DNA of 40,105 bases from NCBI GenBank assembly GCA_017474515.1, contig JAFVHN010000047.1:1-40105 (forward strand), in the 5' to 3' direction. The DNA comes from Prevotella sp. GTDB lineage: Bacteria > Bacteroidota > Bacteroidia > Bacteroidales > Bacteroidaceae. Positions within the stretch are counted from its first letter, which is position 1. Each line of letters starts with the position of its first letter. Made by a program: the position numbers and the translations under genes. The notes beneath the pieces were generated by a model, which was not told where the DNA came from, did not search any database, and worked only from the letters and a program-made list of their open reading frames with translations. Of this stretch, positions 3,958 to 40,091 are shown one piece after another.

Positions 3958-4163
3958 TTGAAAAATCTTGACAAAATCCGGTCGTTTGGGGATATTTTTA
4001 TAAAGTATTGAAAATCAACAACTTGAAAAACCGTCGGAGTTTGACCGCAAATTGAGGGGAGAGATTTGCCAATTCTCTCCCCTCAATTTGCCAAATTTCT
4101 CCTTGAGATTTGCGGTCAAACATTGGTCAGGGCATAAAATTTTATGAATTATTTTGACAAACA
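3958..4163 (+). repeat. Dispersed 205-bp palindromic element, copy 1
   Basis: First of five copies of an intergenic element with a fixed plan. Left terminal repeat TTGAAAAATCTTGACAAAAT (3958-3977). Small palindrome TTGAAAATCAA, then 20 bp, then the 83-bp core (4039-4121) starting GTTTGACCGCAAAT and ending with its reverse complement. Then a 22-bp gap and the right terminal repeat (4144-4163, ATGAATTATTTTGACAAACA, the most diverged end). This copy has one extra base in its left half (206 bp). Its loop holds two 22-bp direct repeats with TTTGCCAA. It lies between the divergent lutA and cotH and ends 26 bp before the cotH -7 box. Function unknown. Confidence 0.9.
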
Positions 4164-4189
4164 TTTCCATTCGTTCGGAACAAAAAGCG

Positions 4190-4197
4190 TAACTTTG
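4190..4197 (+). promoter_or_regulatory. Putative -7 box of cotH
   Basis: TAACTTTG matches TAnnTTTG and lies 25 bp before the ATG at 4223. No good TTTG -33 box at 19 bp is present; TTTC (4164-4167) is 22 bp upstream. The right end of repeat copy 1 sits immediately before it. Confidence 0.5.
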
Positions 4198-4222
4198 CAG
4201 CACTGAATTGACAATTGTGAAA

Positions 4223-6700
4223 ATGAGTAATATTCGTCCCTTAAAATTCCTCTTCCCGACAATGAGTATGAAGAGCACCCTGCTGGTTGCGAGCCTTGCC
4301 TTTTTTTGTGCAAAACAAGCCCGCGGTCAGCTGATTATCAACGAGTTGATGCAGTCTAACGTGGATTGCATCATGGATGACCTGAACGAATTTCCCGACT
4401 CGTGGGTGGAGCTTTATAACGCCGGCGATGCCTCGGTCAATCTCAACCAGTACAGCATTGCCGTGGAAAACGCGGCCTCGAAAGCGTGGAAACTGCCGTC
4501 GAGGACCATTTCGCCGGGGCAATTCGTAGTGGTGTATTGCGATAAGGAGGCGAAGGACCTGCACACGGACTTTAAGCTGGAGTCGGGCAAAGGGGGCAGC
4601 ATTTTCCTGTTTCGCGACGGCACCGTGGCCGACTATCTGGAAAACATGGCCAAACAGCCGGCGCCCAACATAGCCTACGGGCGGCAGACCGACGGCTCCA
4701 CAACGTGGGGCTATCAGCAAACGCCCACGCCGGGAACTCAGAATTGCGGCGAAATATGCCAGCGCGTTTTGGGCGACCCCGTGTTCAGCGAGACGGGGAA
4801 GGTCATTTCCGACAACCGGGTCTTCGACCTCTCGCTCCTGTTGCCCGAGGACGCACCCGAAGGAGCCGAGATACGGGTGACCATGAACGGAAGCGAGCCT
4901 ACGGAGAGCAGCCTGAAATACCTGGCTCCGCTTAGAATCAACAGCTCGCGAATCGTGAAGGCCAAGATATTTTGCAAAGGGTGGCTCTCGCCGCCGGCCG
5001 TCACGCAGTCGTACATTTATTTCCCGCGTGAACTTACGTTGCCCGTCATCTCGATTGCCATTGACAACCGCTACCTGAACGACTCGAAAATCGGCATCTA
5101 CGTGGAGGGAAACTACGAGAATGGAAAGAAAAACTACCAGTTCAACTGGCGCCGGCCCATGAACTTTGAGTATTTTGAAACGGCCGAAACGAGCAGCATC
5201 CTCAACCAGCTTTGCGAAACGCGCGTTCAGGGAGGGGCGTCGAGGGATGCCAAACTGAAATCCCTCATCGTCTATGCAAACAAACGGTTTGGCAAGAAGC
5301 GGCTGAAATATGAGTTCTTCCCCGACCAGCGGCCAGGCCAGGACAACTTCAAGTCGCTGTTGCTGAGAAATGCCGGCAACGACTTCGATTACCTTTACAT
5401 GCGCGATGCCGTCATACAGCGCACCATGTCCAGCCATACCGACCTGGACTGGCAGGCGTGGCGGCCCGCCATCGTGTTCATCAACGGCACCTACAAGGGC
5501 ATTCTCAACATCAGGGAACGGAGCACCGCCGACAACATCTTCACCAACTACGACGAACTGGAAGACATCGACATGATAGAAAACTGGTGGGAAGTGAAAG
5601 AAGGCGACAACGTGAATTTCAAGCAGTTCCAGGATTTCTATGCCGAACACGGGCACACGCTCGCCGAATACAGCCAGTGGATGGACTGGGAGGAATACAT
5701 CAACCTGATGGTGATGAACCTTTACTACAACAACCAGGATTTCCCCGGCAACAACATTGTGATGTGGCGGCCCCGCAGTGCCGGCGGTCGGTGGCGTTTC
5801 GTGGCCAAGGACACCGACTTCGGACTGGGGCTTTACGGCTCGCCCGCCAACTACAAGACCATCGACTGGCTCTACAATCCCGACTACGATAGCGGCCGCA
5901 ACTGGGCCAACCACTGGGAGCACACGCGCCTTTTCCGCCGGATGATGGAGGACGGCGACTTCGCACGCGAGTTCATAGACCGCGCGGCCATATACATGGG
6001 CGACTTTATGAACGAAAGGGGCACAAGGGCCGTCTGGGACCCCATGTACGAGATGATCAGGGAGGAGTATCCCTTCCACCGCGAACTTATCAACAAATGG
6101 TGGCCCAACTACAACGAAGAACTGAACAGCGCCAGGAACTGGCTATCGCAACGAACAGATTATTTCTACAAACAACTGGCCGACTATTATCATCTGGGAA
6201 CACCTTCACGGCTGATTATCAACATGCCCGAACAAAACTCCGATGTCTTTTTCAACGGCGTGAAACTGAGCACCGGGCACTTCGACGGGAAGTTCTTCAG
6301 CCAGCGCAACGTCACCCTGACTTGTACGCCGAAAGAAGGTTATGAGACCACTGGATGGCGCGTAACATTGGTGGGCAACAATGGCGTGGTTACAAATCAG
6401 GAAATCAGCGGCGCGGTCTATTCCTTTACCATGCCCCAATGCAACAACTACGTCGTCGTACCGATTATCGGCGAGACCGACGGCATCAGGCAAAACACCG
6501 TGCCGTCGTGGAGATGGCACCGCGAGGGAGAAAGGCTTGTGGTGGAAAATGTCGGCAAGGGCGTGCTTCTAGTACTCTATGACCTGCGCGGCGTGGAACT
6601 GTTCAGGACGAGGGCCGACGGCGAAACCGTGCAAATGCCCATGAAGGGGCATGGCGTATATTTGCTGAAAGTGGGCGACAAAACGGTCAAAGTGCAGTAA
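4223..6700 (+). CDS. Secreted CotH family protein with lamin-tail domain and possible type IX tail
   Basis: About 825 residues. A signal peptide (hydrophobic LLVASLAFFCA, cleavage near ARG-Q) is followed by a lamin-tail domain (about 36-165, starting QLIINELMQSN). Then comes a CotH domain (about 255-600, with LPVISIAIDN, VQGGASRDAKLKS, LLLRNAGNDFDY, YKGILNIRER). CotH proteins are related to protein kinases; in Bacillus CotH phosphorylates a spore coat protein, but the role of secreted Bacteroidota versions is not known to me. The last about 65 residues (VLYDLRGVELFR...GVYLLKVGDKTVKV) resemble a type IX secretion sorting domain, so export to the surface is likely. Start chosen at ATG 4223; ATG 4262 or 4268 would also leave a good signal peptide. 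It is a single-gene unit, convergent with rho. Confidence 0.88.
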   Translation: MSNIRPLKFLFPTMSMKSTLLVASLAFFCAKQARGQLIINELMQSNVDCIMDDLNEFPDSWVELYNAGDASVNLNQYSIAVENAASKAWKLPSRTISPGQFVVVYCDKEAKDLHTDFKLESGKGGSIFLFRDGTVADYLENMAKQPAPNIAYGRQTDGSTTWGYQQTPTPGTQNCGEICQRVLGDPVFSETGKVISDNRVFDLSLLLPEDAPEGAEIRVTMNGSEPTESSLKYLAPLRINSSRIVKAKIFCKGWLSPPAVTQSYIYFPRELTLPVISIAIDNRYLNDSKIGIYVEGNYENGKKNYQFNWRRPMNFEYFETAETSSILNQLCETRVQGGASRDAKLKSLIVYANKRFGKKRLKYEFFPDQRPGQDNFKSLLLRNAGNDFDYLYMRDAVIQRTMSSHTDLDWQAWRPAIVFINGTYKGILNIRERSTADNIFTNYDELEDIDMIENWWEVKEGDNVNFKQFQDFYAEHGHTLAEYSQWMDWEEYINLMVMNLYYNNQDFPGNNIVMWRPRSAGGRWRFVAKDTDFGLGLYGSPANYKTIDWLYNPDYDSGRNWANHWEHTRLFRRMMEDGDFAREFIDRAAIYMGDFMNERGTRAVWDPMYEMIREEYPFHRELINKWWPNYNEELNSARNWLSQRTDYFYKQLADYYHLGTPSRLIINMPEQNSDVFFNGVKLSTGHFDGKFFSQRNVTLTCTPKEGYETTGWRVTLVGNNGVVTNQEISGAVYSFTMPQCNNYVVVPIIGETDGIRQNTVPSWRWHREGERLVVENVGKGVLLVLYDLRGVELFRTRADGETVQMPMKGHGVYLLKVGDKTVKVQ

Positions 6701-6710
6701 ACCATACGAC

Positions 6711-6766
6711 AAGACGAAGGATGGCTGCCTCGCGGAACAATTCCGGCGGCAGCCATCCTTCGTCTT
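6711..6766. terminator. Bidirectional terminator between cotH and rho
   Basis: A perfect 19-bp stem, AAGACGAAGGATGGCTGCC (6711-6729) with its reverse complement (6748-6766), encloses an 18-nt loop that can itself pair (GGAA/TTCC). It begins 10 bp after the cotH stop and ends 20 bp before the rho stop. A short T-run follows on the plus strand (CTTTTAG). Its place between convergent genes suits termination in both directions. Confidence 0.85.
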
Positions 6767-6785
6767 TTAGTATGGAGAAAAAGTA

Positions 6786-8741
6786 TCAGGAGTTCATTGC
6801 AAGAAGGAACTCCTCGTTGTTGCGTGTACGCTCCATGGAGGCATGGATGGTGTTCATGGCCTCGATGGGGTTCATGTCGGCAATGAATTTTCTCAGAATC
6901 CACATGCGGTCGAGCGTGGTCTTGTCTTGCAACAGATCGTCGCGGCGTGTGCTCGATGCCACCAGGTTGACGGCAGGGAAGATGCGCTTGTTGCTCAGAG
7001 AGCGGTCGAGTTGCAATTCCATGTTTCCCGTTCCCTTGAATTCCTCGAAGATGACCTCGTCCATTTTGGAGCCGGTGTCGATAAGCGCCGTAGCGATGAT
7101 GGTGAGCGAACCGCCATCCTCAATGTTTCGTGCTGCACCGAAGAAGCGCTTGGGCTTCTGAAGAGCATTGGCGTCAACACCGCCGGTGAGCACCTTTCCG
7201 CTGGCCGGGGCCACGGTGTTGTAGGCACGTGCCAGGCGCGTGATGCTGTCGAGGAAAATAACGACGTCGTGACCACATTCCACCAATCGCTTGGCCTTTT
7301 CGAGCACAATGCCGGCAATCTTTACATGGCGCTCTGCCGGTTCGTCGAATGTTGAGGCAATGACTTCCGCGTTCACGGTGCGGGCCATGTCGGTGACTTC
7401 CTCGGGACGTTCGTCAATAAGCAGCATCATCAAGTAAGCCTCGGGATGGTTGGCGGCAATGGCATTGGCAACGTCCTTCATGAGAATGGTCTTACCCGTC
7501 TTGGGCTGGGCAACGATGAGTGCGCGCTGGCCTTTTCCGATAGGAGCGAAAAGGTCCACGATTCTTGTAGAAAGGTTGGTGGTGGAAGCGTCGCCGCAAA
7601 GCATGTATTTCTCATCGGGGAAAAGCGGCGTGAGGTGTTCAAAGGGCACGCGGTCGCGAATTTCCGACGGGTCGCGCCCGTTGATTTTCTCCACACTTGT
7701 CAACGGGAAATACTTCTCGCCGTCGTGTGGCGGCCTGACATGGCAAAGCACCACGTCGCCCGTCTTGAGACCGTATTTCTTAATTTGTTGAACGGAGATA
7801 TAAACATCGTCGGGACTGGAAAGATAGTTATAGTCGCTGGACCGCAGGAAACCATAACCGTCGGGCATCACTTCAAGCACGCCGTTGGCCGTTATGATGT
7901 CGTTGAAGTCGAATTTCTCAACAACAGGGGCCGGCGTTTGTGGAATGAACACAGGCTGCGGCTGCTCTATGGGCGTGGTGGGATTGTCGAACATGTCGTA
8001 GTTGGGCAAAACGGACTGGTCCTCAATGGGAAGGTCATACATCACGATGAAGTCGGTGCCGTCGGCCGGATCGTCTTCCCAAACGCCCACATGGTCGGCG
8101 CCATCATCCTGAATATTGTCTTCCCTGACATTGTGGGCCTGCACTTTTGCCTGCAACTGCGCAATCAGATCGGCAGCTTCCGGAGTATCGTCGTTGCTTC
8201 CTCTTGCACCCCACTCTGCCTCGGGCACAAATTCCGTCATACCTTCTTCCGTTGCCACGGGATCGGGTTCCTCAACCGGTGCAGCCACTTCTTCAGCAGG
8301 GACTTTCTCTTCGGCAGCGCCATTCTCCTTGGCACGCTTTTCCTCCTCTGCGGCGGCGATGGCTGCCAGTTCTGCTTTCGACTTCCTGCCCCTTTTCTTT
8401 GGAGCAGGAGCAGGAACCTCCTCAACGGGAGCGGGCTCCGGCTCTGGAATTTCCTTAAACAAAGGAGCGGGTTCTGCCGTGGGCTTGTTCTTCTTCAGGT
8501 CGAAGTTTTCACCGTCTTTTCCGCTTACGGAATACACGCGGTCGGTATCTTTCTTCACGATTCTTGTGCGCTTACGCTTGGCGGGTTGTACGTTTTGGCT
8601 GCCCGACAAGGCCTGCTGGTCAAGAATCTGATATACTATGGTCTCGATGTCGGCTTTGGGGTCGATGGTTACGTTCAATTCCTTGGCAATATCTTCCAAC
8701 TGGGAGATATTCATTGCAATTAAATCTTCTTTAATATACAT
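6786..8741 (-). CDS. rho: Transcription termination factor Rho with long disordered insert
   Basis: A 651-residue Rho, against 419 in E. coli. A short N-terminal helical domain ([15 protein letters not shown]) is followed by about 220 residues rich in Glu, Pro, Ala and Lys (roughly 50-275) that look disordered. The RNA-binding cold-shock-like domain comes next (from about 283; [15 protein letters not shown]). The ATPase domain has the P-loop QPKTGKT (about 411-417) and the ring motifs [15 protein letters not shown] and [16 protein letters not shown]. Rho is a hexameric RNA helicase that ends transcription. The N-terminal insert is typical of Bacteroidota; for Bacteroides thetaiotaomicron Rho it has been linked to condensate formation. 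Start taken at 8741; ATG 8714 (MNISQLED) is a good alternative. It is a monocistron with a leader of roughly 120 nt. Confidence 0.97.
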
Positions 8742-8868
8742 AAACTGTTAACAGGGATAAATCCTTTGAAAAATTGATGTTGAGATGAAAATGTTTCGCG
8801 GATGGAAACGGGGATTGAAAAAAAGCGTGGACTATATGAAAATACCACCACTGCTGCTTTTTCGGGTG

Positions 8869-8899
8869 CAAAGGTACAAATAAACGGGTTAACCGCAAA
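8869..8899 (-). promoter_or_regulatory. Promoter of rho
   Basis: The minus strand carries TTTG (8896-8899), exactly 19 bp, then TACCTTTG (8869-8876), a full match to the Bacteroidota consensus. It predicts a leader of roughly 120 nt before rho, long enough for autoregulation by Rho-dependent attenuation; that last point is inference. Confidence 0.75.
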
Positions 8900-8997
8900 G
8901 GAAAAAACGATTTTTTTACCTCGTTGCGTTTATTTTTTGATTTTAGAAAAGACGAATAAAGGCACGAAAAGGGGCAAAGCAACGCGGAAAGGCTTTT

Positions 8998-9657
8998 TCA
9001 CCCTTCGCTTTTCTCTTTTCCCTTGAGTCCTCCGTTCTCCTTCATCAGCCGGTCGAGCACCTCCAGCCCCTTGGCCGTGCATAGCCCCCGCAACTGCACA
9101 TGAATATAGTTTTCAAAAATCTCGCTCAGGGGATATATCTCGTACATCTTTTTCTCCATCACATAGTTCGTGACGGCATCGCTCATTTGTGCTATCAGCT
9201 CATAGTTGACGCCTTTCCTGAAATAGCCGTGCTCCACGCCCTTCAGGAAAAAATCTATCGATTGCCGCCGCCCTTCCTCAAAACGATCTTGAAGATATGC
9301 CTTCACCCGTACATATTTCACCAATTCGCTGAAGAACAAAGGGTTTACATGGCTCACCTCGTTGAGTTTCAACCTTAGTGCCAGCACCACAATCTCTATT
9401 TCGTTGCGCCCCTGGGCGGCATAAGTCATCAGCTCGCGCTGGTTGCGCTCATTGTCGCGCACAAGGCCTTCGAATAACAATTGCTCCTTGTTGGCATAAA
9501 GCTCATAAAGGGTACGCTTGGAGATAGACAACGACTGGGCAAGGTCGTCCATCTTCACGTTTTTCAAACCATGGGCCTTGAACATCGACATGGCCTTGTC
9601 GAGAATGAGTTGCTGAAGTTGTTGTTTATACTCTGTGGGGGTGTTTTCTTTAATCAT
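8998..9657 (-). CDS. TetR/AcrR family transcriptional regulator
   Basis: A 219-residue regulator. The N-terminal helix-turn-helix (about residues 12-58) contains ILDKAMSMFKAHGLKNVKMD and LAQSLSISKRTLYELYANKE, the typical TetR layout; the rest is a helical ligand/dimer domain with no recognisable motif. I start at the ATG at 9657 (MIKENT). An upstream ATG at 9687 would lie before the -7 box at 9675-9682 and so could not be on that transcript. It is divergent from maeB across 231 bp, which makes maeB a candidate target, but no operator palindrome stands out. The ligand is unknown. Confidence 0.9.
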   Translation of the reverse strand: MIKENTPTEYKQQLQQLILDKAMSMFKAHGLKNVKMDDLAQSLSISKRTLYELYANKEQLLFEGLVRDNERNQRELMTYAAQGRNEIEIVVLALRLKLNEVSHVNPLFFSELVKYVRVKAYLQDRFEEGRRQSIDFFLKGVEHGYFRKGVNYELIAQMSDAVTNYVMEKKMYEIYPLSEIFENYIHVQLRGLCTAKGLEVLDRLMKENGGLKGKEKSEG

Positions 9658-9674
9658 CACTTTGGAATTTCGTG

Positions 9675-9682
9675 CAAATATA
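9675..9682 (-). promoter_or_regulatory. Putative -7 box of the TetR gene
   Basis: On the minus strand the sequence is TATATTTG, a TAnnTTTG match 17 bp upstream of the chosen start. No clean -33 box is seen at 19 bp. It implies a short 5' leader of about 10-12 nt. Confidence 0.5.
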
Positions 9683-9831
9683 CACATATTTCACAAATAA
9701 TTATACAACACGGCCCGGATTTTGATTTTTTTTAAGGGAAAAGGAGCAAGCAGAAAATGAAAACTTGAAATCTTTTCCACCATTTCAGCGTTAATCTTCC
9801 AAAAAAAGCACGCCGTTTGAAATGAAAGTCG

Positions 9832-9839
9832 TACCTTTG
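9832..9839 (+). promoter_or_regulatory. Putative -7 box of maeB
   Basis: TACCTTTG lies 49 bp before the maeB ATG and is followed by GCAG, as in other starts of this window (cotH, menI). A TTTG upstream (9816-9819) is only 12 bp away, too close for the usual -33 box. Confidence 0.5.
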
Positions 9840-9888
9840 CAGACGTTTGTAAAAAGATTGTAAGTATAACACACATAACACACGCATC

Positions 9889-12186
<2,298 letters not shown>

Positions 12187-12224
12187 GCCGAATCTTTCCA
12201 CCCCCGAGGGACTTCAACAGAACG

Positions 12225-12270
12225 ACATGCCGGAGCAGGAAAACACACCCCTGTTTCGGCATGTTTTTTA
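12225..12270 (+). terminator. Terminator of maeB
   Basis: The stem ACATGCCG (12225-12232) with CGGCATGT (12257-12264) is extended inside by CAGG/CCTG and followed by a run of six T. It starts 38 bp after the maeB stop and ends just before repeat copy 2. Confidence 0.85.
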
Positions 12271-12275
12271 CATCC

Positions 12276-12480
12276 ATTTTGTCAAGATTTTTCATCATTT
12301 TTCAGACCTCCTCAATAGTTTGACCGCAAATTTCGGGGAGAAATCTTGAAGATTGAGAGGAGAAATCTTGAAGATCTCTCCCCGAAATTTGCGGTCAAAC
12401 TCCGACCAATTTTCAAATGACTGAAAATCAGGAAGTTATAAAATGGTCAAAATTTAGGAAATTTTGTCAAGATTTTTTAC
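12276..12480 (-). repeat. Dispersed 205-bp palindromic element, copy 2 (inverted)
   Basis: Same element as copy 1 but on the minus strand. Read on the minus strand: left terminal repeat GTAAAAAATCTTGACAAAAT (12461-12480), small palindrome CTGATTTTCAG (12421-12431) in which both outer bases have changed together, 20 bp, 83-bp core (12318-12400), 22 bp, right terminal repeat ATGAAAAATCTTGACAAAAT (12276-12295). The core loop has two 22-bp repeats starting at ATCTTCAAGATTTCTCC. It lies between the convergent maeB and trmN6, directly after the maeB terminator. Confidence 0.92.
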
Positions 12481-12553
12481 CGTTTTTCATACCCGTTTTT
12501 GCATCTAAAACATGGCATGGAAAGCGATGGTTTTTCCACACAAAAACACCCCG

Positions 12554-13267
12554 TCATTCATCCCTGTTCCGACAGGTGAAGGCGGCAAGCAACTGGCGGT
12601 GACGGTCGTCGCCGATGGTGAGCTCTTCAACCTCGAACGACGGTTCAGGTTGCCAAGAAAACTCAAGGAGGCAACGCGACGGAGGCTTGTGGGAGGCGGT
12701 CTTCACCCGACATTCACGAGTGAGGAAAAGCCCGGCCATCACGGCTTCCGTATGGATTTCACCGGCAGATCGCGACGGGATGACCAGCGAAAAACGGCCC
12801 TGCGGATGAAGTAGGCGGGCCACGCTAACAAACAGTTCGCCAAACGGCAACGACGTATCGTGGCGGGCCAGACTTCGGCGGTCGTCGGGACTTTTGAGCG
12901 ATTGGCTGAAAAACGGAGGGTTGCAGACAATGGCGTCGAACAACGGCCCGCCATCGCCAACAATCGTTTCCGCAAATTGTTGTACGGAAGATTCCACCAC
13001 GTTGATACGCTGGGCGAAAGGCGACGCGGCTATATTTTCACGGGCCTGCAGGCAGGCTTCATGGTCGATGTCGATGGCCGTGGCCTGGCATAGCGGAAAA
13101 CGTTGCGCAATCATCAACGCAATAAGCCCGGTGCCGCACCCCACGTCAAGCACGCGCCCTCCGCCATTGGCCCACGCGCCAAGCAGGGTGCCGTCGGTGC
13201 CCACCTTCATGGCGCACCGCTCCTGCCGCACCACAAATCGGCTGAACTGATAGTAATTATTCGACAT
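12554..13267 (-). CDS. trmN6: tRNA1(Val) adenine-37 N6-methyltransferase
   Basis: A 237-residue SAM-dependent methyltransferase (YfiC/TrmN6 family) that methylates N6 of A37 in tRNA-Val. Visible motifs are the SAM-binding loop VLDVGCGTGLIALMIAQR (about residues 39-56), the acidic end of strand 2 (AIDIDHEA) and the catalytic NPPF (about residue 117, IVCNPPFFSQS). The start MSNNYYQFSRFVV agrees with family N-termini (FxFKQFxVxQ...CAMKVGTDG). A -7 box lies only 8 bp before the ATG, so the mRNA may be nearly leaderless. It is convergent with maeB and monocistronic. Other N6-methyltransferases share the NPPF motif, but length and N-terminus favour TrmN6. Confidence 0.92.
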   Translation of the reverse strand: MSNNYYQFSRFVVRQERCAMKVGTDGTLLGAWANGGGRVLDVGCGTGLIALMIAQRFPLCQATAIDIDHEACLQARENIAASPFAQRINVVESSVQQFAETIVGDGGPLFDAIVCNPPFFSQSLKSPDDRRSLARHDTSLPFGELFVSVARLLHPQGRFSLVIPSRSAGEIHTEAVMAGLFLTRECRVKTASHKPPSRCLLEFSWQPEPSFEVEELTIGDDRHRQLLAAFTCRNRDE

Positions 13268-17946: not shown

Positions 17947-17948
17947 CC

Positions 17949-24428: not shown

Positions 24429-24566
24429 CAAAATCTTTTTCAATTACGCATCAGTCATGTAAAGATTTTAAAAAAAAACTCTCCGACTTTGCTGGATTAA
24501 CAATTATCCCAAATTCAGTGGAACAGCAGAACCTTGAAAAACGGGTTTGTATATGGGTAAAAACAC

Positions 24567-24771
24567 ATGAAAAATCTTTACAAATTCACCTTTTCCGAGG
24601 CGCATTTGTAAGTCATTGACAATCAACACAATAAAAATAAAGGAAAGTTTGGCGGTAAATTGAGGGCCTTAAAGTGCCAATTCTCTCCCCGAAAAGTGCC
24701 AATTTGCCGCCCTCAATTTACCGCCAAACTATGTGATGAGCTGGAGAAGCGATGAAAAATCTTTACAATCC
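24567..24771 (+). repeat. Dispersed 205-bp palindromic element, copy 3 (variant)
   Basis: Same plan and spacing as the other copies but with a different sequence type. The terminal repeats are ATGAAAAATCTTTACAAATT and ATGAAAAATCTTTACAATCC, so TTGACA has become TTTACA at both ends. The core (24647-24729, 83 bp) has arms GTTTGGCGGTAAATTGAGGG and their perfect reverse complement. The small palindrome is TTGACAATCAA, again 20 bp before the core. The loop has two 22-bp repeats starting AAGTGCCAATT. It lies between the DUF285 gene and the ppiD terminator. Confidence 0.92.
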
Positions 24772-33830: not shown

Positions 33831-34013
33831 AATACTTTATGTGTGATTGATTTTATATTCCTTTTGACGCGATGGTTTTTGTATGGTTTAAACAGGAATG
33901 AAAAAAAAGTGGCCACTTTTTCTTCGGAGAAATGAAGAAAAGAGGCTTGAAAATGCTCAAAAAAGCAACCCCTTTTTGAAAAAAAAATACGGATAAAGGG
34001 AGTGGTAAAAACG

Positions 34014-34218
34014 GTAAAAATATTTGACAAAATTTCCATTTTTGTGGCATTTTTGTAACACACTGATAATCAAGCAGTTTATAATCGGTCGGAGTTTGAC
34101 CGCAAATTTCGGGGAGAAATCTTCAAGATTTCCCCTCTCAATCTTCAAAATCTCTCCCCGAAATTTGCGGTCAAACTTTTTTCAAAGACACAAAAACCAT
34201 GAAAAATCTTGACAAAAT
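34014..34218 (+). repeat. Dispersed 205-bp palindromic element, copy 4
   Basis: The left terminal repeat is GTAAAAATATTTGACAAAAT (34014-34033) and the right one ATGAAAAATCTTGACAAAAT (34199-34218). The small palindrome is CTGATAATCAA, 20 bp before the core. The core (34094-34176, 83 bp) has perfect 24-bp arms (34094-34117 and 34153-34176) and two 22-bp loop repeats (34118-34139, 34140-34161) starting AATCTTCAA. It lies between the divergent beta-barrel receptor gene and the Crp-family gene. Confidence 0.93.
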
Positions 34219-34511
34219 TATTGTCAGAGTTCATTCAACAATTCCCCTTCGAAGGCATCCCAAGAACAAGCGCCTTTCCCTTTTAAACCTTTTTTATAAA
34301 AAAGTCCCCGTAACTAAAAAAAGAAAAACGCTCCTATCCTCCCCTACTCCTTTGACTAAAAAAATCATGGATACCAAAAGCTACCGCATAGAAAACAACA
34401 TCTCCTTAGATAAAAGAACAAGGGATTAAGAATTATTAACTGCACAGGAAGTCATAATTCGTTGAAAACCGCGTATATATAAATGAGAGCCGTTGACACA
34501 AAGCACTGCCC
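34219..34511 (+). other. Intergenic region before the Crp-family gene (no gene supported)
   Basis: About 290 bp, AT-rich, with a perfect short palindrome CTTTTTTATAAAAAAG. A 76-codon frame starts at the ATG of the repeat's right end (34199) and runs to 34429, but its Lys/Ser/Leu-rich content looks non-coding. No TAnnTTTG box is clear before the gene at 34512. Confidence 0.5.
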
Positions 34512-35090
34512 ATGGAGCATAAATTCAACTCACCCCCCACCACCCTGAACCTCACTTTGCTACGCGACTTCTGCCGTAGCAAGGGCGAGGCCGTCACCTA
34601 TCGCAGGGGCATGCAGATGGAGCGCGAGGGTGAACCGGCGCGATGGTTCGCCTTCGTGGAGAGCGGGTGCTTCAAATACACCACGCGCGGCATCAGCGAC
34701 GGACACAAACACACCACATGGTTTTCGTTCGAGGGTGAGTTTGTGTCCAACTATCCCCAATCCTTGTACGGCCAACCGGCACAAGTCACCATCGAGGCAA
34801 TGGTAAATAGCCGCGTGCGGAGGGTCAGCGGAGAGCAGCTCATGGAGTTGTTCTTCCAAAACATGGAAACGATGGAACTGCGCAGCCGCATCGGTGAGCA
34901 CCTGCTCAGGCAAATGAACGCCCGCTACCTGGATTTCCACCGTACCACCCCGCGCGAACGCTATGAGTTGTTGCTTAGCCGTTGTCCCGGCATCATGGAC
35001 TATTTGCCGCTCAGTGCCATTGCCTCTTTCCTCAACATCACGCCAAAAACCATTTCCATGATACGCCGGAAGGTGACTTTTGGGAAATAG
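34512..35090 (+). CDS. Crp/Fnr family transcriptional regulator
   Basis: 192 residues. The N-terminal two-thirds (about 10-125) form a cyclic-nucleotide-binding-like beta barrel (AVTYRRGMQMEREGEPARWF, FVESGCFKYTT, WFSFEGEFVSNYPQSLYGQP). The C-terminal helix-turn-helix (about 145-190) has PRERYELLLSRCPGIMDYLP and LSAIASFLNITPKTISMIRR. The classic phosphate-binding residues of E. coli CRP (RxS) are not evident, so it probably does not bind cAMP; such divergent members are frequent in Bacteroidota. No Cys cluster of the FNR type is present. It precedes the ECF sigma cassette by 306 bp, with a terminator between, so they are likely separate units. Confidence 0.88.
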   Translation: MEHKFNSPPTTLNLTLLRDFCRSKGEAVTYRRGMQMEREGEPARWFAFVESGCFKYTTRGISDGHKHTTWFSFEGEFVSNYPQSLYGQPAQVTIEAMVNSRVRRVSGEQLMELFFQNMETMELRSRIGEHLLRQMNARYLDFHRTTPRERYELLLSRCPGIMDYLPLSAIASFLNITPKTISMIRRKVTFGK

Positions 35091-35209
35091 GCTGGCAACG
35101 GCACCCCCACAACCCTTTACCTTGGTAAAGACTTTCGGCCGGGCGATGTTCTTTTCCGGTTTTACCTGCTGACGTTTCAACGGGTTTTCCTTACTTTTGT
35201 CCTCCGAAA

Positions 35210-35229
35210 GAGTCTTTTCGTAAAGACTC
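35210..35229. terminator. Hairpin downstream of the Crp-family gene
   Basis: GAGTCTTT (35210-35217) and AAAGACTC (35222-35229) pair perfectly around TCGT. No long T-run follows, so its role as a terminator is doubtful; the stronger hairpin comes 19 bp later. Confidence 0.4.
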
Positions 35230-35247
35230 CCTCGTTAGTTTTTATGC

Positions 35248-35283
35248 GGCAACATCCGTCGCGACGATGGATGTTGCCATTTT
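35248..35283 (+). terminator. Terminator after the Crp-family gene
   Basis: GGCAACATCC (35248-35257) pairs perfectly with GGATGTTGCC (35269-35278); the loop holds a GTCGCGAC palindrome; ATTTTA follows. Upstream TTTTTA on the other side would allow action in both directions. The rest of 35284-35396 holds GC-rich partial hairpins and a T8 run but no clear promoter box. Confidence 0.7.
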
Positions 35284-35396
35284 AAGAAAGCCCTGACACG
35301 GCGAACGACCCCACTTTGGGGAGGCGCCGGGGCGCACTGCTTTTTTTTCGTTAACAAAGCGACATATATTACCGAACCAATCGTATAACAAGTAGA

Positions 35397-35978
35397 GTGA
35401 GACCACAAACAAGCGAACTGACGGACAGGCAGATAGCCGAGGCCATCTGCCGTGGCCGACGAGAAGGAGAAGACGCAATGGTAGGCCGCTACGCCAGGCT
35501 GGTGTTCGCCATCATTGTCAGACTGGTGCCCAACGAGATGGATGCCCAGGAACTGACGCAGGACACCTTCCTGAGGGCGTTCCGACACATCGGAAGCTAC
35601 GATGCCGACAAAGCCTCGCTTTCCACGTGGCTCTGTAGAATTGCCTACCGACTGACGCTCGACTTCCTGAAACGCCGGCAACCGGTCGTCGTGTCGATGG
35701 AAGATAGCGAGGTGTGGCAGACGGACATCAGCAACGCCCTCTTGGAGGCCGGCTTGTCAACAGGTCGCGAAGAACGCATCAGGCAACTGGAAAAACTGAT
35801 GGACGAATTGCCGGCAGACGAGCGGATGCTGCTCAACCTCTACTATTTCGACAACTGCCCATTGGCTGAAATCGGATATATCATGGACGTCAATGCGGGC
35901 GCACTGGCCAACCGCCTGCATAGAATACGAAAGAAACTTTACCGAAAACTGATTGAAAATGAACGAAATGAATTATAA
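35397..35978 (+). CDS. ECF-type RNA polymerase sigma-70 factor
   Basis: 193 residues. Region 2 (about 28-95) includes YARLVFAIIVRLVPNEMDAQ, ELTQDTFLRAFRHIG and the -10-binding helix LSTWLCRIAYRLTLDFLKRR. Region 4 (about 132-185) includes LPADERMLLNLYYFDNCPLA, EIGYIMDVNAGALANRLHRI and a basic end. It is the size of an ECF factor and lacks regions 1 and 3. The start is the GTG at 35397; an internal ATG at 35479 would remove the first helix of region 2. It overlaps the next gene by 20 bases, so sigma and the predicted anti-sigma are translated together. No SusC/SusD pair follows, unlike many Bacteroidota ECF loci. Confidence 0.93.
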   Translation: MRPQTSELTDRQIAEAICRGRREGEDAMVGRYARLVFAIIVRLVPNEMDAQELTQDTFLRAFRHIGSYDADKASLSTWLCRIAYRLTLDFLKRRQPVVVSMEDSEVWQTDISNALLEAGLSTGREERIRQLEKLMDELPADERMLLNLYYFDNCPLAEIGYIMDVNAGALANRLHRIRKKLYRKLIENERNEL

Positions 35979-36837
35979 CGACAGCGACCTGCGCGAGGCG
36001 CTGCGGCGCAAAAATGCCACTACGCCCGCGCTTCCCGACGACTTCTTCAAAAGCCTAAGCCGGAAAGCGAGGATGCAACATGCCATGAGAAGAAAATGGA
36101 AATGGAGCGCGGTGGCGGCTTCTATAATAATAATAGGTGTAGGGGCCTACATGGTGTCCCTCAGCCGCCTTGACAACGGCCAACCGAAGGCACCTGTTGC
36201 GGAAATGCAGAGGAAGACGACTCCGCCCAGGCCGCTCACACAACCTGCTGAAATAGAGGAAAAAGCAGCAATCAAGAACAAAGTCGGAACAAGGGCAAGG
36301 AAGAAAAGGAGCCTGGCACCGCAACCCCCTGCCGCCACCGCTAAAAAGGAAAGTGCGGAGATAGTGGAAAACAAAAACCACCTGCACTTCGCCACCTATG
36401 AGCCGACAGCCGACAGCGCTTACCAGCCACCCAGCCGAATGGACAAATTCATCGCAAAAATGGCCGAATATAATAAGGTGGAAGCCATATCATTGGAATG
36501 TGGCACCGACGAGGAAAAGTTGCCGACGGTGGGAACGGCCTATGTGTTTCCCGACCAGCAGGAGCTCGACGTCTTCGGCAGACTGCTGCAAGCGGCATGC
36601 TGGTACGATAGCAATACGCCGGGATACCTGCTCAATTTCTCGCACCAGCAATTCTTCTTCTGCCTGAAAGATCCGCTTGAGAAAAAGCAGTATTTTTGGA
36701 TTGCCGAACGCATCAACGGCAACCGCATCCTGCTTTTCTGCACCCATTCAGCGATAGGAGCCGATAAATCTGCGGCTTGCTATCAGCAATATCGCGACAA
36801 ACTTACAAATACCGATGTTGACACCTTAAACAACTGA
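35959..36837 (+). CDS. Predicted membrane-anchored anti-sigma factor
   Basis: About 292 residues. The cytoplasmic N-terminus (about 1-47; DLREALRRKNATTPALPDDF) precedes one membrane helix (about 50-67, WSAVAASIIIIGVGAYMVSL). A Lys/Ala/Pro-rich linker follows, then an extracytoplasmic domain (from about 155; MDKFIAKMAEYNKVEAISLE, FGRLLQAACWYDSNTPGYLL, QYFWIAERINGNRILLFC). The layout and the 20-base overlap with an ECF sigma gene identify it as a likely anti-sigma factor; no zinc-binding ZAS motif (HxxxCxxC) is seen, and the C-terminal domain is not recognised. ATG 35968 is an alternative start. It is followed after 6 bp by a secreted protein gene. Confidence 0.75.
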   Translation: MNEMNYNDSDLREALRRKNATTPALPDDFFKSLSRKARMQHAMRRKWKWSAVAASIIIIGVGAYMVSLSRLDNGQPKAPVAEMQRKTTPPRPLTQPAEIEEKAAIKNKVGTRARKKRSLAPQPPAATAKKESAEIVENKNHLHFATYEPTADSAYQPPSRMDKFIAKMAEYNKVEAISLECGTDEEKLPTVGTAYVFPDQQELDVFGRLLQAACWYDSNTPGYLLNFSHQQFFFCLKDPLEKKQYFWIAERINGNRILLFCTHSAIGADKSAACYQQYRDKLTNTDVDTLNN

Positions 36838-36843
36838 AACACA

Positions 36844-37998
36844 ATGAAAAAAAGTATCTACGCCTTTCTATTTTTGTTTATGGGAGCGAACCTATGGGCT
36901 CAATCGAACAACGTAAAAGAACTGGTAGGCAGCGTGGGCGCAATCGTGCCGCGCCCCACCATAGAAACCAACAAAAAAACGAAACAAACGTCAGCAGTGT
37001 GGCACAGCACGAACAACGCCTGGATAAAAGACACCATCTGGGCACATAACGTCAACGTGGAAAAAGATTATGAGAAACTATTTCCAGAGATTGCCAACGT
37101 GCTGACCGACGAAACGCCCTATTTGCCCATGAGCTGGAGGCTCACCGAAGAAAGGGGCGAAACGGTCTTGCACTGCTACCTGCAAATGCCGGCCGACGTG
37201 GTGACAAACCTTTGGCTCGCATCAGAGGAAACATGTCTCGTAGATAGCGAAACGGGGGTGCAATACCGCATACGACGCACCGAGCCCGACACCTTCAGAA
37301 AGCATTTCGGAGTAAAAGGCAAGAAGGGCGACGTGCTCGACCTCAAGATTTTCTTCCCTCCCCTACTCGACTCAACCCGCGAAGTGACGGTCTTCGGCAT
37401 TCCCAACTGGCACTTGGTGGGAGACAAAATCAACGTCAGGGAAGTTCAGGCAAGCTGGCAATCACTTGACGACTACGACACCATTCCACGTTTCCACCAA
37501 CCGCGCTTGCTTAGGGAGCACCTCAGCGAAGACAAGCCCTACGACAAACAGAACTGGAACACATGGAAAGTGTTTACCGACGCACACCTTATCAAACCGC
37601 TAAAAGACGAGACGATGGCCCTGTGGCGAACGCCCGATGCCACCTACATCGCCGTGGCCTATGAACAAAACTGGACGCGCGAATACTTTGGTTTTGAACC
37701 CGGCGACATATTGCTCGACGAGAGCGGACACCAATACAAATTGCGCAAAGTGGAGGGCGTGCCCCTGGGAGAGCTGTTCTTCATGGAGGGAAATGCCGGC
37801 GACTACATCGCCTACATGATGGTGTTCGACCCTCTGCCACCCAACCTGAAAACCTTCACTTACATCACGCCCGAAGGTGAGCCCTTCAGTGCATGGGGCA
37901 CCAACTGGTCGGGGAAAGTGCTTCACAACCTCAATGTAGAGAAATTGAGAGCCAACCAGCGACTTTTCGACTATCATCCACGAATTGTCGTTGAATAG
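36844..37998 (+). CDS. Secreted protein of unknown function in the sigma cassette
   Basis: 384 residues with a clear signal peptide (MKKSIYAFLFLFMGANLWAQ) and no other membrane segment. The mature protein contains repeated beta-type stretches such as WHSTNNAWIKDTIWAHNVNV, YLPMSWRLTEERGETVLHCY, TVFGIPNWHLVGDKINVREV and GDILLDESGHQYKLRKVEGV. The last and an earlier VDSETGVQYRIRRTEPDTF look like two versions of the same unit, suggesting two related domains. I do not recognise the family. It is the third gene of the ECF cassette (6 bp after the anti-sigma gene) and could be the sensed or regulated envelope component. A strong terminator closes the cassette. Confidence 0.8.
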   Translation: MKKSIYAFLFLFMGANLWAQSNNVKELVGSVGAIVPRPTIETNKKTKQTSAVWHSTNNAWIKDTIWAHNVNVEKDYEKLFPEIANVLTDETPYLPMSWRLTEERGETVLHCYLQMPADVVTNLWLASEETCLVDSETGVQYRIRRTEPDTFRKHFGVKGKKGDVLDLKIFFPPLLDSTREVTVFGIPNWHLVGDKINVREVQASWQSLDDYDTIPRFHQPRLLREHLSEDKPYDKQNWNTWKVFTDAHLIKPLKDETMALWRTPDATYIAVAYEQNWTREYFGFEPGDILLDESGHQYKLRKVEGVPLGELFFMEGNAGDYIAYMMVFDPLPPNLKTFTYITPEGEPFSAWGTNWSGKVLHNLNVEKLRANQRLFDYHPRIVVE

Positions 37999-38043
37999 AG
38001 ATTTGCTTTAATTCATATTTTAACTATTCTATTCCCGGGACGG

Positions 38044-38078
38044 AGCATGGGGCGCAGCGATTGCGGTCCATGCTTTTT
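38044..38078 (+). terminator. Terminator of the ECF sigma cassette
   Basis: AGCATGG (38044-38050) pairs with CCATGCT (38068-38074), extended inside by CGCA/TGCG, and is followed by a T-run. It lies 46 bp after the stop of the secreted protein gene. Confidence 0.85.
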
Positions 38079-38154
38079 AACTGTGGAATTATCGTTATTC
38101 GCCCTTCACATAAAAATTTTCACTTTTCTCTTTTCCCTTTTCCTTATTTAGTCG

Positions 38155-38162
38155 TACCTTTG
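38155..38162 (+). promoter_or_regulatory. Putative -7 box of menI-menF
   Basis: TACCTTTG followed by GCAG, 24 bp before the menI ATG. The -33 position has TTTC at 19 bp (38132-38135), one base off TTTG. Confidence 0.6.
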
Positions 38163-38186
38163 CAGTGGATAAAATAATGAAAGACG

Positions 38187-38621
38187 ATGAATGTAGAAAG
38201 TATTAAAGAAATCATAGAGAGGCAACCCAACCTTTCCACGGCGTTGGGCATGGAGTTTATTTCAACCACCGAGGAAGACACCTGCAAGGCCATCATGCAG
38301 GTTGACGAGCGCAACCGCCAGCCCTTCGGATTCCTCAGCGGCGGCGCTTCGCTGGCCCTGGCGGAGAACCTGGCCGGCGTGGGGTCGTCGGCACTTTGTC
38401 CGGGAAAAATCTGCGTGGGCATCAGCGTAAGCGGCGAACATGTGAAGGCGGTGGCCGAAGGCGACACCGTGACCGCCACGGCCCACCTGGTGAGCCGCGG
38501 CAGGAAGCTCCACGTTTGGGATGTTCATATCAACGACTCGCTGGGTGACCTTATCTCAACCGTACACGTCACCAACTATATTATTTCACCGGAACACAAA
38601 GGAGAAGAAAACGAAGAATAA
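38187..38621 (+). CDS. menI: Hotdog-fold thioesterase, probably 1,4-dihydroxy-2-naphthoyl-CoA hydrolase
   Basis: 144 residues, the PaaI/MenI size. The hotdog helix motif FGFLSGGASLALAENLAGVG (about 47-66) carries Glu60 at the usual acidic catalytic position; where many members have HGG this one has SGG. Other conserved parts are CVGISVSGEHVKAVAEGDTV and the C-terminal strand LGDLISTVHVTNYII. Its stop overlaps the start of the isochorismate synthase gene (TAATG), so the pair is co-translated. That pairing points to menaquinone synthesis, where MenI releases CoA from the naphthoate intermediate. Specificity for this substrate is inferred from context; a general acyl-CoA thioesterase is the alternative. 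Confidence 0.82.
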   Translation: MNVESIKEIIERQPNLSTALGMEFISTTEEDTCKAIMQVDERNRQPFGFLSGGASLALAENLAGVGSSALCPGKICVGISVSGEHVKAVAEGDTVTATAHLVSRGRKLHVWDVHINDSLGDLISTVHVTNYIISPEHKGEENEE

Positions 38622-39805
38622 TGGGAGCATTTGCCATTTACCGACAGCCTTTTGCCACCGGCTGCACGCTGGTGGTGCAAAAAGACGGCGAGGTGGAAGT
38701 GTTGCACTCATTCGCCGAGCTCAACGGGCGCAGCGGATATGTGGTGGCGCCGTTTGCCATCTCGCGCGAAGACCCGCTTCTGCTCATCCGGCCCGACGAG
38801 GTTGTAAACATTCCCCTTGTTTCGATGGACAATGAAACAACGCAGCCGCTGAACGAGGAAAGGCTGGAGGAACTCTGCCCGGGGTTCAAGGAAACATTCG
38901 CCAGCTGCTCCGTTTCGGCCTCCGCCGTAAACCGCATGGGAGAAAGTCAGAAGAAAGAAAGGGAAACGATGCGGCTGCGCTATCACATCGACTTCAGCAG
39001 CTTTCATGCCCATCTGCAATCGGGTGAGTTCCAGAAGATTGTGCTTTCACGCTGTCTGCATGAGGAGATGCCGGCCGGCATCTCGCCCATCGGCCTTTTT
39101 CAGAAAGCCTGCGAGCACTATCCCCGCATGTTCGTGTCGCTCTTGAGCACACCCCAGTCGGGCACATGGCTCATGGCCACGCCGGAAATACTTTTGGAGG
39201 GATGCGGAGGGAAATGGCGCACCATCGCACTGGCCGGCACCATGGACATTCCCGAACAGCAGGAGAAACCCGACTGGAGCACCAAGAACATTCAGGAACA
39301 ACGGTTCGTGGCCACATACATCACCAAGTGTCTGGAGCAGTTCCTCATCGGCGAAGACGCCAACAACGCCTATGGCCACGACATCGAGGAAGACGGACCG
39401 TTCACCGTGCAGGCGGCCAATGTGCTCCACCTGCGCAGCGACTTTAATTTCACCCTGCCCGAAAACGCACACATAGGGAGCCTTTTGAGGCGGCTGCACC
39501 CCACCCCGGCCGTTTGCGGCCTTCCCAAGGAACAGACGTTCGACTTCATCCGCCGCAATGAGTCGGCCAAGCGCCACTACTACAGCGGCTTCTCGGGGCC
39601 GCTCGCCCTCGACGGCAACACCCACCTGTATGTGTCGCTGAGGTGCATGCTCATCAACCACGACGGCTGCCACCTCTATGCCGGCGGCGGATTGCTCCGC
39701 GACAGCGACGAGGAACAGGAATGGGAGGAAACGGAAGCAAAGATGGAGGCCATGAAGTGCCTGCTTCATGACGAAAAAGACATATCAGGCCCAAAAGGAA
39801 ATTAA
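38621..39805 (+). CDS. menF: Isochorismate synthase
   Basis: A 394-residue chorismate-utilising enzyme that turns chorismate into isochorismate, the entry step of menaquinone synthesis. The conserved C-terminal half (about 120-385) shows FQKIVLSRCLHEE, TWLMATPEILLEGCGGK, IALAGTMDIPEQ, LHPTPAVCGLPKEQTF, YYSGFSGPL and LYAGGGLLRDSDEEQEWEET. EntC-type enzymes (siderophore) have the same motifs; the linked menI and lack of siderophore genes favour MenF. The start ATG 38621 shares one base with the menI stop. menD, often next in Bacteroidota, is not directly downstream; the dispersed repeat comes instead. Confidence 0.92.
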   Translation: MGAFAIYRQPFATGCTLVVQKDGEVEVLHSFAELNGRSGYVVAPFAISREDPLLLIRPDEVVNIPLVSMDNETTQPLNEERLEELCPGFKETFASCSVSASAVNRMGESQKKERETMRLRYHIDFSSFHAHLQSGEFQKIVLSRCLHEEMPAGISPIGLFQKACEHYPRMFVSLLSTPQSGTWLMATPEILLEGCGGKWRTIALAGTMDIPEQQEKPDWSTKNIQEQRFVATYITKCLEQFLIGEDANNAYGHDIEEDGPFTVQAANVLHLRSDFNFTLPENAHIGSLLRRLHPTPAVCGLPKEQTFDFIRRNESAKRHYYSGFSGPLALDGNTHLYVSLRCMLINHDGCHLYAGGGLLRDSDEEQEWEETEAKMEAMKCLLHDEKDISGPKGN

Positions 39806-39886
39806 GCAATTTCTTTGGTGTCAGCCCATCCCCAAAACCAGTTTTAAATCTGCCCCGAAGATGGGTAATTCCATAGGTCAAAATTG

Positions 39887-40091
39887 GTAAAAATATTTGA
39901 CAAAATTCTTAAAATTCCGGCTATTTTATAACATATTGATAATCAATAGGTTTTAAAACGGCCGAAGTTTGACCGCAAATTTCGGGTCTCAAACTTCAAA
40001 ATCTCTTCCCTCAAACTGCCAAATCTCTCCCCGAAATTTGCGGTCAAACTTATTGAGGGAACTAAAAAACCATGAAAAATCTTGACAAAAA
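39887..40091 (+). repeat. Dispersed 205-bp palindromic element, copy 5
   Basis: The left terminal repeat is GTAAAAATATTTGACAAAAT (39887-39906), identical to copy 4, and the right one ATGAAAAATCTTGACAAAAA (40072-40091). The small palindrome is TTGATAATCAA, 20 bp before the core (39967-40049, 83 bp). The arms pair over 20 bp and then lose pairing, because the left arm reads CGGGTCTC where the right has CTCTCCCCG. The loop has the two 22-bp repeats. It lies 81 bp after menF. Nothing else is seen to the window end. Confidence 0.92.

What the first reader, a model, noticed from the sequence alone, without database searches (positions are those of the whole stretch)
3958..40091. Five copies of an unnamed 205-bp intergenic element with invariant internal spacing
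Copies: 3958-4163, 12276-12480 (minus), 24567-24771, 34014-34218, 39887-40091. In each, the distance from TTGACAAAAT (or its variant) to the small YTGA-TCAR palindrome is 39 bp (40 in copy 1). From that 11-bp palindrome to the core it is 20 bp, the core is exactly 83 bp, and the core to the right terminal repeat is 22 bp. Outside the conserved boxes the sequence differs widely between copies, so the spacing is kept while sequence drifts. Terminal repeats are direct, not inverted, which excludes an ordinary transposon-type miniature element. Hairpin plus direct ends recalls non-autonomous elements moved by Y1 (IS200/IS605 or REP-type) transposases. A structured RNA or a protein-binding array is also possible. 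One copy per roughly 6-12 kb is very dense. I do not know this element under any name.
Basis: seen in the sequence. Interest (0 to 1): 0.88.

Follow-up and report, generated by a model that had tools for sequence, protein, structure and literature searches.

The report
Evenly spaced PINSR-like protein-binding DNA elements
The five look-alike stretches are real and belong to some 270 rigidly built, evenly spaced DNA elements in this Prevotella-type chromosome, most likely docking platforms for a DNA-folding protein of the HU family and not jumping genes; a counterpart called PINSR was described before without a function.

Summary
All five copies are at the stated places with fixed spacing. They belong to a genome-wide family: 61 copies in 799 kb of this genome, about 268 in all by extrapolation. 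Each element is: end box, palindrome B, four 22-bp units, end box. Copies are old and individually constrained: free positions are random between copies, boxes are kept, and no pair among 54 exceeds 85% identity. They are more evenly spaced than chance: no gap under 3.7 kb among 52. Several other genomes of the genus carry arrays with the same 22-bp period but other unit sequences. Such arrays lie beside genes of the HU-HIG family (PF18291): 30 of 72 loci against 3 of 29 control loci, mostly upstream. The same plan recurs in a 188-bp repeat of two genomes, one of them apparently P. falsenii; I take it, by inference, for PINSR, a published repeat without known function. Best reading: a phased binding platform for HU-like nucleoid proteins. 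The link of this very family to one HU-HIG gene is clear only for part of its copies. The Y1-transposon reading is not supported. Binding is inferred.

The parts
3935..4163 (+). Copy 1, whole element with left extension
3956..3977 (+). Copy 1 left box TTTTGAAAAATCTTGACAAAAT
3997..4029 (+). Copy 1 palindrome B (33 bp, centre TGA-N3-TCA)
4038..4125 (+). Copy 1 four 22-bp units (units 2-4 of the ATTTGC type, related to array F3 upstream of an own HU-HIG gene)
4144..4163 (+). Copy 1 right box
12273..12495 (-). Copy 2, whole element; lies between convergent genes for malic enzyme and a methyltransferase
12461..12482 (-). Copy 2 left box
12410..12442 (-). Copy 2 palindrome B
12314..12401 (-). Copy 2 four 22-bp units
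12276..12295 (-). Copy 2 right box
24542..24771 (+). Copy 3, whole element, lowest-scoring of the five
24565..24586 (+). Copy 3 left box
24605..24637 (+). Copy 3 palindrome B
24646..24733 (+). Copy 3 four 22-bp units (also related to F3)
24752..24771 (+). Copy 3 right box
33995..34219 (+). Copy 4, whole element
34012..34033 (+). Copy 4 left box
34052..34084 (+). Copy 4 palindrome B
34093..34180 (+). Copy 4 four 22-bp units
34199..34218 (+). Copy 4 right box
39862..40092 (+). Copy 5, whole element, near the contig end
39885..39906 (+). Copy 5 left box
39925..39957 (+). Copy 5 palindrome B
39966..40053 (+). Copy 5 four 22-bp units
40072..40091 (+). Copy 5 right box

Best explanation
Each copy is a fixed DNA platform for a nucleoprotein complex. 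Four short palindromic sites repeat every 22 bp (about two helical turns), so proteins bound there sit on one face of the helix. A 33-bp palindrome B, which looks like two inverted IHF-type sites (TCARNNNNTT; IHF consensus recalled), and two end boxes complete it. The likely binders of the 22-bp units are DNA-binding proteins of the HU-HIG (PF18291 / HU_rel) family; each has its own unit sequence, often an array by its own gene (autoregulation inferred) and dispersed arrays elsewhere. About 268 such platforms stand at rather even intervals along this chromosome, which suggests a role in nucleoid organisation, for example holding loops or supercoiling domains. Shown: anatomy, copy number, constraint, even spacing, 22-bp period in several genomes of the genus, HU-HIG linkage of such arrays. 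Inferred: binding, which protein binds this family, and the chromosome-organising role.
For: Rigid spacing in 54 of 54 copies, and 31 free positions at 29% pairwise identity (33% expected from composition) beside 86% at 140 kept positions. 61 copies in 799 kb, 59 covering 200 or more profile positions, two partial (model 45-233 and 27-202); nothing else above 9.0 bits away from them. 52 gaps: CV 0.53, minimum 3.7 kb; random intergenic placement gives CV 0.81 and 9.6 gaps under 3.5 kb (P 0.0002; 0 of 5000). In 200-kb samples period 22 stands out among 14-40 bp: G016 8 vs 0, G010 11 vs at most 1, G003 14 vs at most 2, G100 16 vs at most 1. HU-HIG loci: 30 of 72 have a 22-bp array within 700 bp, TrmN6 loci 3 of 29 (Fisher P 0.0016); 25 upstream, 5 downstream (P 0.0003); 18 of 25 for proteins of 190 aa or more. 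Dispersed arrays match an HU-HIG-adjacent array of the same genome in 15 of 44 cases, 4.4 expected under label permutation, 0 of 5000. Of 16 cross-genome HU-HIG pairs with at least 45% identity 7 share units (mean score 19.6, permuted 8.4, 0 of 5000). In G003 three loci are B + array + HU-HIG gene in the same layout. Window copies 1 and 3 align with the F3 array upstream of an own HU-HIG gene (0 of 500 shuffles each); 28 of 61 own copies do so at z >= 4 (40 shuffles each).
Against: No binding or expression data. No main-family copy was found within 1.5 kb of either own HU-HIG gene. The majority-type core does not match F3 (90 of 500 shuffles), and window copies 2, 4 and 5 only weakly or not (12, 55 and 7 of 500); array F5, which is not known to lie by an HU-HIG gene, matches copy 1 as well (0 of 500). 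In the own genome period 22 outside the known copies (10) is no more frequent than several other periods (14: 14, 16: 11, 18, 21 and 27: 10 each), and only 17 array calls at period 22 fall in the 61 copies. In G016 none of 8 dispersed arrays matches its HU-HIG-adjacent array; 14 of 44 dispersed arrays match some array of another genome at the same score, with many more arrays to compare. Four of the 15 same-genome matches rest on an F2 array that I recognised by eye beside own gene L319. Over all 371 cross-genome pairs protein identity and unit similarity do not correlate (rho 0.02), and sharing by the closest pairs may be common descent. 42 of 72 HU-HIG loci show no array; G061, rich in HU-HIG genes, has no excess of dispersed arrays. 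Loci of one genome are not independent.
Confidence: 0.5

Rival explanations
1. A non-autonomous mobile element (MITE or Y1/REP type) that spread long ago and is now fixed.
For: High copy number, dispersed, species-specific sequence; in G003 three near-identical loci of B + array + HU-HIG gene lie at different places; one near-identical pair of own copies at two contig ends; a truncated PINSR-like copy in G017.
Against: Direct, not inverted, end boxes; two partial copies among 61 and no adjacent ones; no pair above 85% among 54; free positions saturated while boxes are kept, so copies look individually selected; avoidance of short distances; no Y1 gene found in four genomes with arrays.
Confidence: 0.17
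2. A structured RNA or a transcription terminator/attenuator: hairpins B and C act in transcripts.
For: Core hairpin has changes on both sides in 17 of 39 pairs (0 of 500 shuffles); B pairs covary modestly.
Against: The element folds with similar energy on both strands; elements occur in divergent (20), tandem (32: 22 opposite, 10 same strand) and convergent (8) gaps; a 22-bp period is kept although units and their orientations change between genomes; no Rfam family.
Confidence: 0.1
3. A set of operator sites for ordinary transcription regulators, each HU-HIG or other factor controlling a large regulon.
For: Arrays lie upstream of HU-HIG genes (25 of 30); 52 elements lie in divergent or tandem gaps (107 such gaps of 230 bp or more), 8 in convergent ones (30 gaps).
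Against: Convergent gaps, where no promoter is expected, also carry whole elements, as copy 2; even spacing along the chromosome is not expected of a regulon.
Confidence: 0.15
4. A self-recognition mark, such as a DNA uptake or anti-foreign-DNA tag, with species dialects.
For: Hundreds of copies, species-specific units, even spread.
Against: Far longer and more elaborate than known uptake sequences (recalled); linkage of such arrays to HU-HIG genes points to a nucleoid protein; not tested here.
Confidence: 0.05

Closest known systems
[quoted passage not shown] 23:11, PMC4755523; outline with abstract, and sections 3.4 and 2.3 read)
   Same: Intergenic, 177 and 184 copies in two strains, no terminal inverted repeats, said not to be a MITE. 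The 188-bp repeat of G100 and G017 (G017 has the same HU-HIG array as P. falsenii, a PINSR-positive species) has the same plan: box, B-like palindrome, four 22-bp units, box. A profile of it, run over the own contigs, hits own elements in 15 of 19 places (E <= 5), though they are 1.7% of the bases.
   Different: No single match is significant (best E 0.027 of that profile in an own copy; own profile at G100 copies 0.25 or worse). About 195 instead of 179 bp between the corresponding letters of the two boxes. Other lineage. The sections read name no 22-bp units, HU proteins or even spacing. The printed PINSR consensus is in a figure that is not held, so the identity of the G100/G017 repeat with PINSR is inferred.
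HU-HIG / HU_rel proteins (Pfam PF18291, NCBIfam TIGR01201)
   Same: Candidate binders; arrays in the own genome and in relatives lie by their genes.
   Different: These are proteins; I found no paper in the library on arrays bound by them. The own two reach the PF18291 cut-off but not the TIGR01201 one.
BrickBuilt of Porphyromonas gingivalis (PMC4596501; outline, abstract and passages seen)
   Same: Intergenic, tandem short repeats between a leader and a tail.
   Different: 23-nt direct repeats, 1 to 22.8 units, terminal inverted repeats like those of IS5-family elements, 19 copies in one strain.
REP/BIME with RAYT (PMC2817692, abstract and outline seen)
   Same: Many intergenic palindromes, co-evolving with a cognate protein gene flanked by the same sequence.
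   Different: The cognate protein here would be an HU-like protein, not a Y1 transposase; rigid four-unit 22-bp phasing.

Membership tests
MITE | Terminal inverted repeats | tested here: not met
   End boxes are direct repeats
MITE | Young near-identical copies, truncated relics | tested here: not met
   Highest pairwise identity 84.5% among 54 copies; 2 partial of 61 copies, nothing else above 9.0 bits in 799 kb. One near-identical pair at two contig ends, C78 and C102, was not among the 54
MITE | Target site duplication / empty sites | tested here: inconclusive
   In a sample of 120 genus genomes the best identity at a neighbouring gene was 59% or less for whole-length matches (short fragments up to 70%), so no empty-site comparison
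Y1 (IS200/IS605, REP/RAYT) non-autonomous element | Cognate Y1 transposase present with matching flanks | tested here: not met
   Own genome one weak hit (35.5 bits), no element in its 4-kb stretch but another, GTAG-tagged palindrome; none in G003, G055, G074, G091
PINSR | Intergenic, more than 100 copies, no inverted ends | tested here: met
   'intergenic' rests on a crude gene caller
PINSR | Sequence match to the 188-bp repeat | tested here: inconclusive
   No single significant match (best E 0.027), yet 15 of 19 weak hits fall in own elements covering 1.7% of bases; published consensus not seen
PINSR | Box - B - four 22-bp units - box plan (not in the sections read; taken from G100/G017) | tested here: met
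HU-HIG target array | Units like those beside an HU-HIG gene of the same genome | tested here: inconclusive
   Copies 1 and 3 match F3 (0 of 500 shuffles), copies 2, 4, 5 at 12, 55 and 7 of 500; majority core 90 of 500; 28 of 61 copies at z >= 4
HU-HIG target array | Binding of the protein | not testable with these tools
   Needs experiment
Structured RNA family | Match to a described RNA family | tested here: not met
   Only 16S rRNA in the window
BrickBuilt | 23-nt repeats with leader, tail and inverted ends | tested here: not met
   22-bp units, direct ends

The most novel reading that the evidence does not exclude
Prevotella chromosomes are organised by a sequence-specific nucleoid code: HU-HIG proteins, each with a fast-changing specificity, assemble on phased four-site platforms set every 10 or so kilobases, and protein and platforms change sequence together between species. 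PINSR would be one dialect of it, the window element another.
Probability: 0.33. Interest if true: 0.9.

Novelty: new variant of a known kind. Interest (0 to 1): 0.73.

Why it matters
HU proteins are usually thought of as poorly specific DNA benders (recalled). Here a branch of that family is tied to phased arrays, and one class of such arrays stands in hundreds of evenly spaced copies whose sequence differs by species. It gives a testable function for PINSR, left unexplained in its description, and a possible plan for how these abundant gut and mouth bacteria fold their chromosomes. It also raises the question how hundreds of sites and one protein change specificity together.

Tried and rejected
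Plain DNA similarity finds the family in none of 39 relatives, and an exact 20-mer of the core in no named genome (that collection may leave out the own genome). The covariance model finds weak relatives in 7 of 59 other genomes, which led to the 22-bp period. RNAalifold of the whole element keeps only the core hairpin; the idea of three independent hairpins was dropped. B-arm covariation over 87 sequences counts palindromes on both strands, so its significance is too high; I rely, where it is modest. Orthologous-site comparison at the methyltransferase gene failed: none of 29 relatives' loci shows the malic-enzyme neighbour. A clear strand rule was not found: 22 opposite, 10 same in tandem gaps. 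Plain HU genes: the nearest family copy by C105 is about 2.4 kb away, none in the C49 stretch. Viral contigs, phages and plasmids were not searched. Literature: ten searches; PINSR surfaced only in the last.

Rows dropped: three HU-HIG loci (L279-L281) picked because B lay near, and the two own loci, are left out of the 72. In one search one of 13 hits was a run of N, so 12 of 30. In G100 two of 19 repeat peaks (64 and 55 bp long) were left out of the 26 copies, and two of those 26 (one misoriented, one truncated) out of the consensus. One of 12 period-22 calls in G017 is a CA repeat.

Full report
Observation. The five copies exist as described. Aligned, they share a left box (TTGACAAAAT with ATGAAAAATC or GGTAAAAATA before it), 43-44 bp to the centre of a palindrome B (TGA-N3-TCA with TTNNTAA / TTNNAAA arms), 8 bp to a core of four 22-bp units, and a right box close to ATGAAAAATCTTGACAAAAT. 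Left and right boxes are direct repeats 185-186 bp apart. The only Rfam match in the window is 16S rRNA at its edge.

Genome-wide. The window is the whole contig C78 of a 3.51-Mb, 118-contig genome, 88% complete. BLAST lists 40 copies with only 40 of 271 candidates scored; a covariance model built from 28 copies finds all 150 places that were scored at E <= 6.1e-18. In nine contigs taken whole (799,127 bases including the window) a profile finds 61 copies with 56.7 bits or more, 59 of them over 200 or more profile positions and two partial, and nothing else above 9.0 bits away from them. Extrapolated, about 268 copies.

Constraint. In 54 copies in register, the B-core distance never changes; the best pair is 84.5% identical; 140 kept positions have median pairwise identity 86%, 31 free positions 29%, about the level expected from composition (33%). 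Thus the copies are old at free positions and held at the boxes. That is the mark of sites under selection, not of a recently spread transposon. The core hairpin shows changes on both sides in 17 of 39 pairs, B less clearly.

Spacing and context. 52 neighbour distances have mean 12.9 kb, CV 0.53, minimum 3.7 kb. Random choice of intergenic gaps gives CV 0.81 and 9.6 distances below 3.5 kb (P for the CV 0.0002; none of 5000 runs lacked such short distances). Contexts: 20 divergent, 32 tandem, 8 convergent, 1 at a contig end. My gene caller is crude: 23 of 61 midpoints fall in an open frame of 70 aa or more, 21 of these of 151 aa or less, one of 252, one at the end of a frame of 1157 aa.

Across the genus. 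The model finds weak relatives in 7 of 59 other genomes. Of the nine alignments shown, those of G057, G010, G003, G006 and G055 keep B but have other, 22-bp repetitive cores by eye. A 16-base pattern for B is found in 26 of 100 genus genomes, the own among them with 166 strand hits; the reversed pattern gives none except in G077. In an order-wide sample of 198 genomes 24 have a hit, mostly one or two, and the reversed control rings in 6, so the signal there is weak. Around 40 B sites taken from G055, G016, G003, G063, G069, G074, G091 and G023 the best period is usually exactly 22, but not at every site, for instance not in the G063 stretches (part of the output was cut). In 200-kb samples 22-bp arrays number 8, 11, 14 and 1 in G016, G010, G003 and G061; other periods 14-40 give 0, at most 1, at most 2 and at most 4. 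Units are short palindromes plus a spacer, different by species and in G003 and G010 by family. In the own genome ten further arrays of at least five other families lie outside the known copies in 799 kb, but there period 22 is not in excess: periods 14, 16, 18, 21 and 27 give 10 to 14.

HU-HIG. A search for PF18291 in 16 genomes showed hits close to B sites in G003. In fetched loci, 22-bp arrays lie next to HU-HIG genes. Pooled without loci picked for B and without the own genome: 30 of 72 loci in 32 genomes have an array within 700 bp, any other period at most 9 of 72; 3 of 29 TrmN6 loci do (P 0.0016). 25 arrays are upstream, 5 downstream. Proteins of 190 aa or more, some with a C-terminal extension that reads as a winged helix (HTH_24 weakly in one, below its cut-off), have an array in 18 of 25 loci, shorter ones in 12 of 47. 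Of 16 cross-genome pairs with 45% protein identity or more, 7 share units, far above permutation; over all 371 pairs there is no correlation, and for the closest pairs common descent may suffice. Dispersed arrays match an HU-HIG-adjacent array of their own genome in 15 of 44 cases against 4.4 (0 of 5000): G003 6, own 5, G010 4, G016 0, G061 0; 14 of 44 match some array of another genome at that score. Both own HU-HIG genes have an array upstream: F2 at C10 (seen in the sequence printed), F3 at C25. F3 units align with the cores of window copies 1 and 3 (0 of 500 shuffles each) but only at 12, 55 and 7 of 500 with copies 2, 4 and 5; the majority core fails (90 of 500); 28 of 61 copies reach z >= 4. 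This partial kinship is the only link found between the window family itself and a given HU-HIG gene.

Prior art. PINSR is a 188-bp intergenic repeat of P. intermedia, 177 and 184 copies, also in P. nigrescens, P. falsenii and P. disiens, without inverted ends, of unknown function; about three quarters of its regions are shared by two strains (PMC4755523, section 3.4). In G100 (two large contigs) and G017 (whose HU-HIG locus shows the same array as Prevotella falsenii DSM 22864) I took 26 copies from 300 kb; 24 gave a consensus of 188 profile positions: end box, B-like palindrome, four 22-bp units, end box. The distance between fixed letters of the boxes is 179 in 17 of 18 copies where it could be measured and 180 in one; 6 were not measurable. 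24 gaps have a minimum of 3.35 kb (uniform placement P 0.0006; CV 0.62, P 0.014). I take this to be PINSR, by length, host and copy density; the printed consensus could not be seen. Its profile has no significant single match in the own contigs (best E 0.027), but 15 of its 19 weak hits fall in own elements, which make up 1.7% of the bases. The window family is thus best seen as a far-diverged counterpart of PINSR.

Mechanism. A 22-bp period in DNA, independent of unit sequence, with HU-HIG genes beside such arrays, is best read as cooperative binding of HU-like proteins on one face of the helix. B resembles two inverted IHF sites (consensus WATCAANNNNTTR, recalled), which fits the same protein superfamily. 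Even spacing points to a role in folding the chromosome. None of this is shown biochemically.

Novelty. A repeat of the same plan has been described, so this is a variant of a known kind. I found no paper in the library on the 22-bp plan, the even spacing or the HU-HIG link (searches; one open library only, and of PINSR's paper only the parts named above were read).

Noticed in passing
window 1-294, minus strand: 5' end of a 16S rRNA gene at the contig edge.
   Followed up: no
window 39887-40105 and L024 1-219 (C102 start): Two contig ends carry nearly identical copies of the element with the same first bases of right flank; an assembly break or a recent duplication.
   Followed up: no
own contigs C84:116012, C53:17467, C104:65181, C59:30127 (F2); C94:91343, C25:85994 (F3); C94:55187, C94:101660 (F4); C53:44824 (F5); C104:73434 (F6): Five further families of 22-bp arrays, mostly without a B-like palindrome nearby, several with 91-98% repeat identity.
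   Followed up: partly
own genome, e.g. C94 near 91.2 kb, C59 near 30 kb: A separate palindromic repeat CCGACGC...GCGTCGG, 37 matches in 799 kb, often with GTTACT before it.
   Followed up: no
L353 (C24:21500-25500): A Y1 transposase-like gene followed by GTAGGGACATAC...GTATGTCC palindromes; a likely REP/RAYT pair of its own.
   Followed up: partly
L004, L015, L017, L020, L022, L030: A short sequence like GCGCTTCGCTAAATGA stands just outside the right box of several copies.
   Followed up: no
L094, L096, L103, L160: Palindrome B without an evident 22-bp array upstream of what looks like one orthologous small secreted protein gene in G047, G060, G089 and G063.
   Followed up: no
L279, L280, L281: Three near-identical units of B + 22-bp array + HU-HIG gene at different places of G003, as if the set had been duplicated.
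   Followed up: partly
L148, L149, L150: In G016 two or three elements share long similar flanks beyond the array; L149 and L150 lie 11 kb apart.
   Followed up: no
L075 (G012): A weak model match whose core carries GACCGCAAAT and its inverse, the same half-site as the own core, in another genome of the genus.
   Followed up: no
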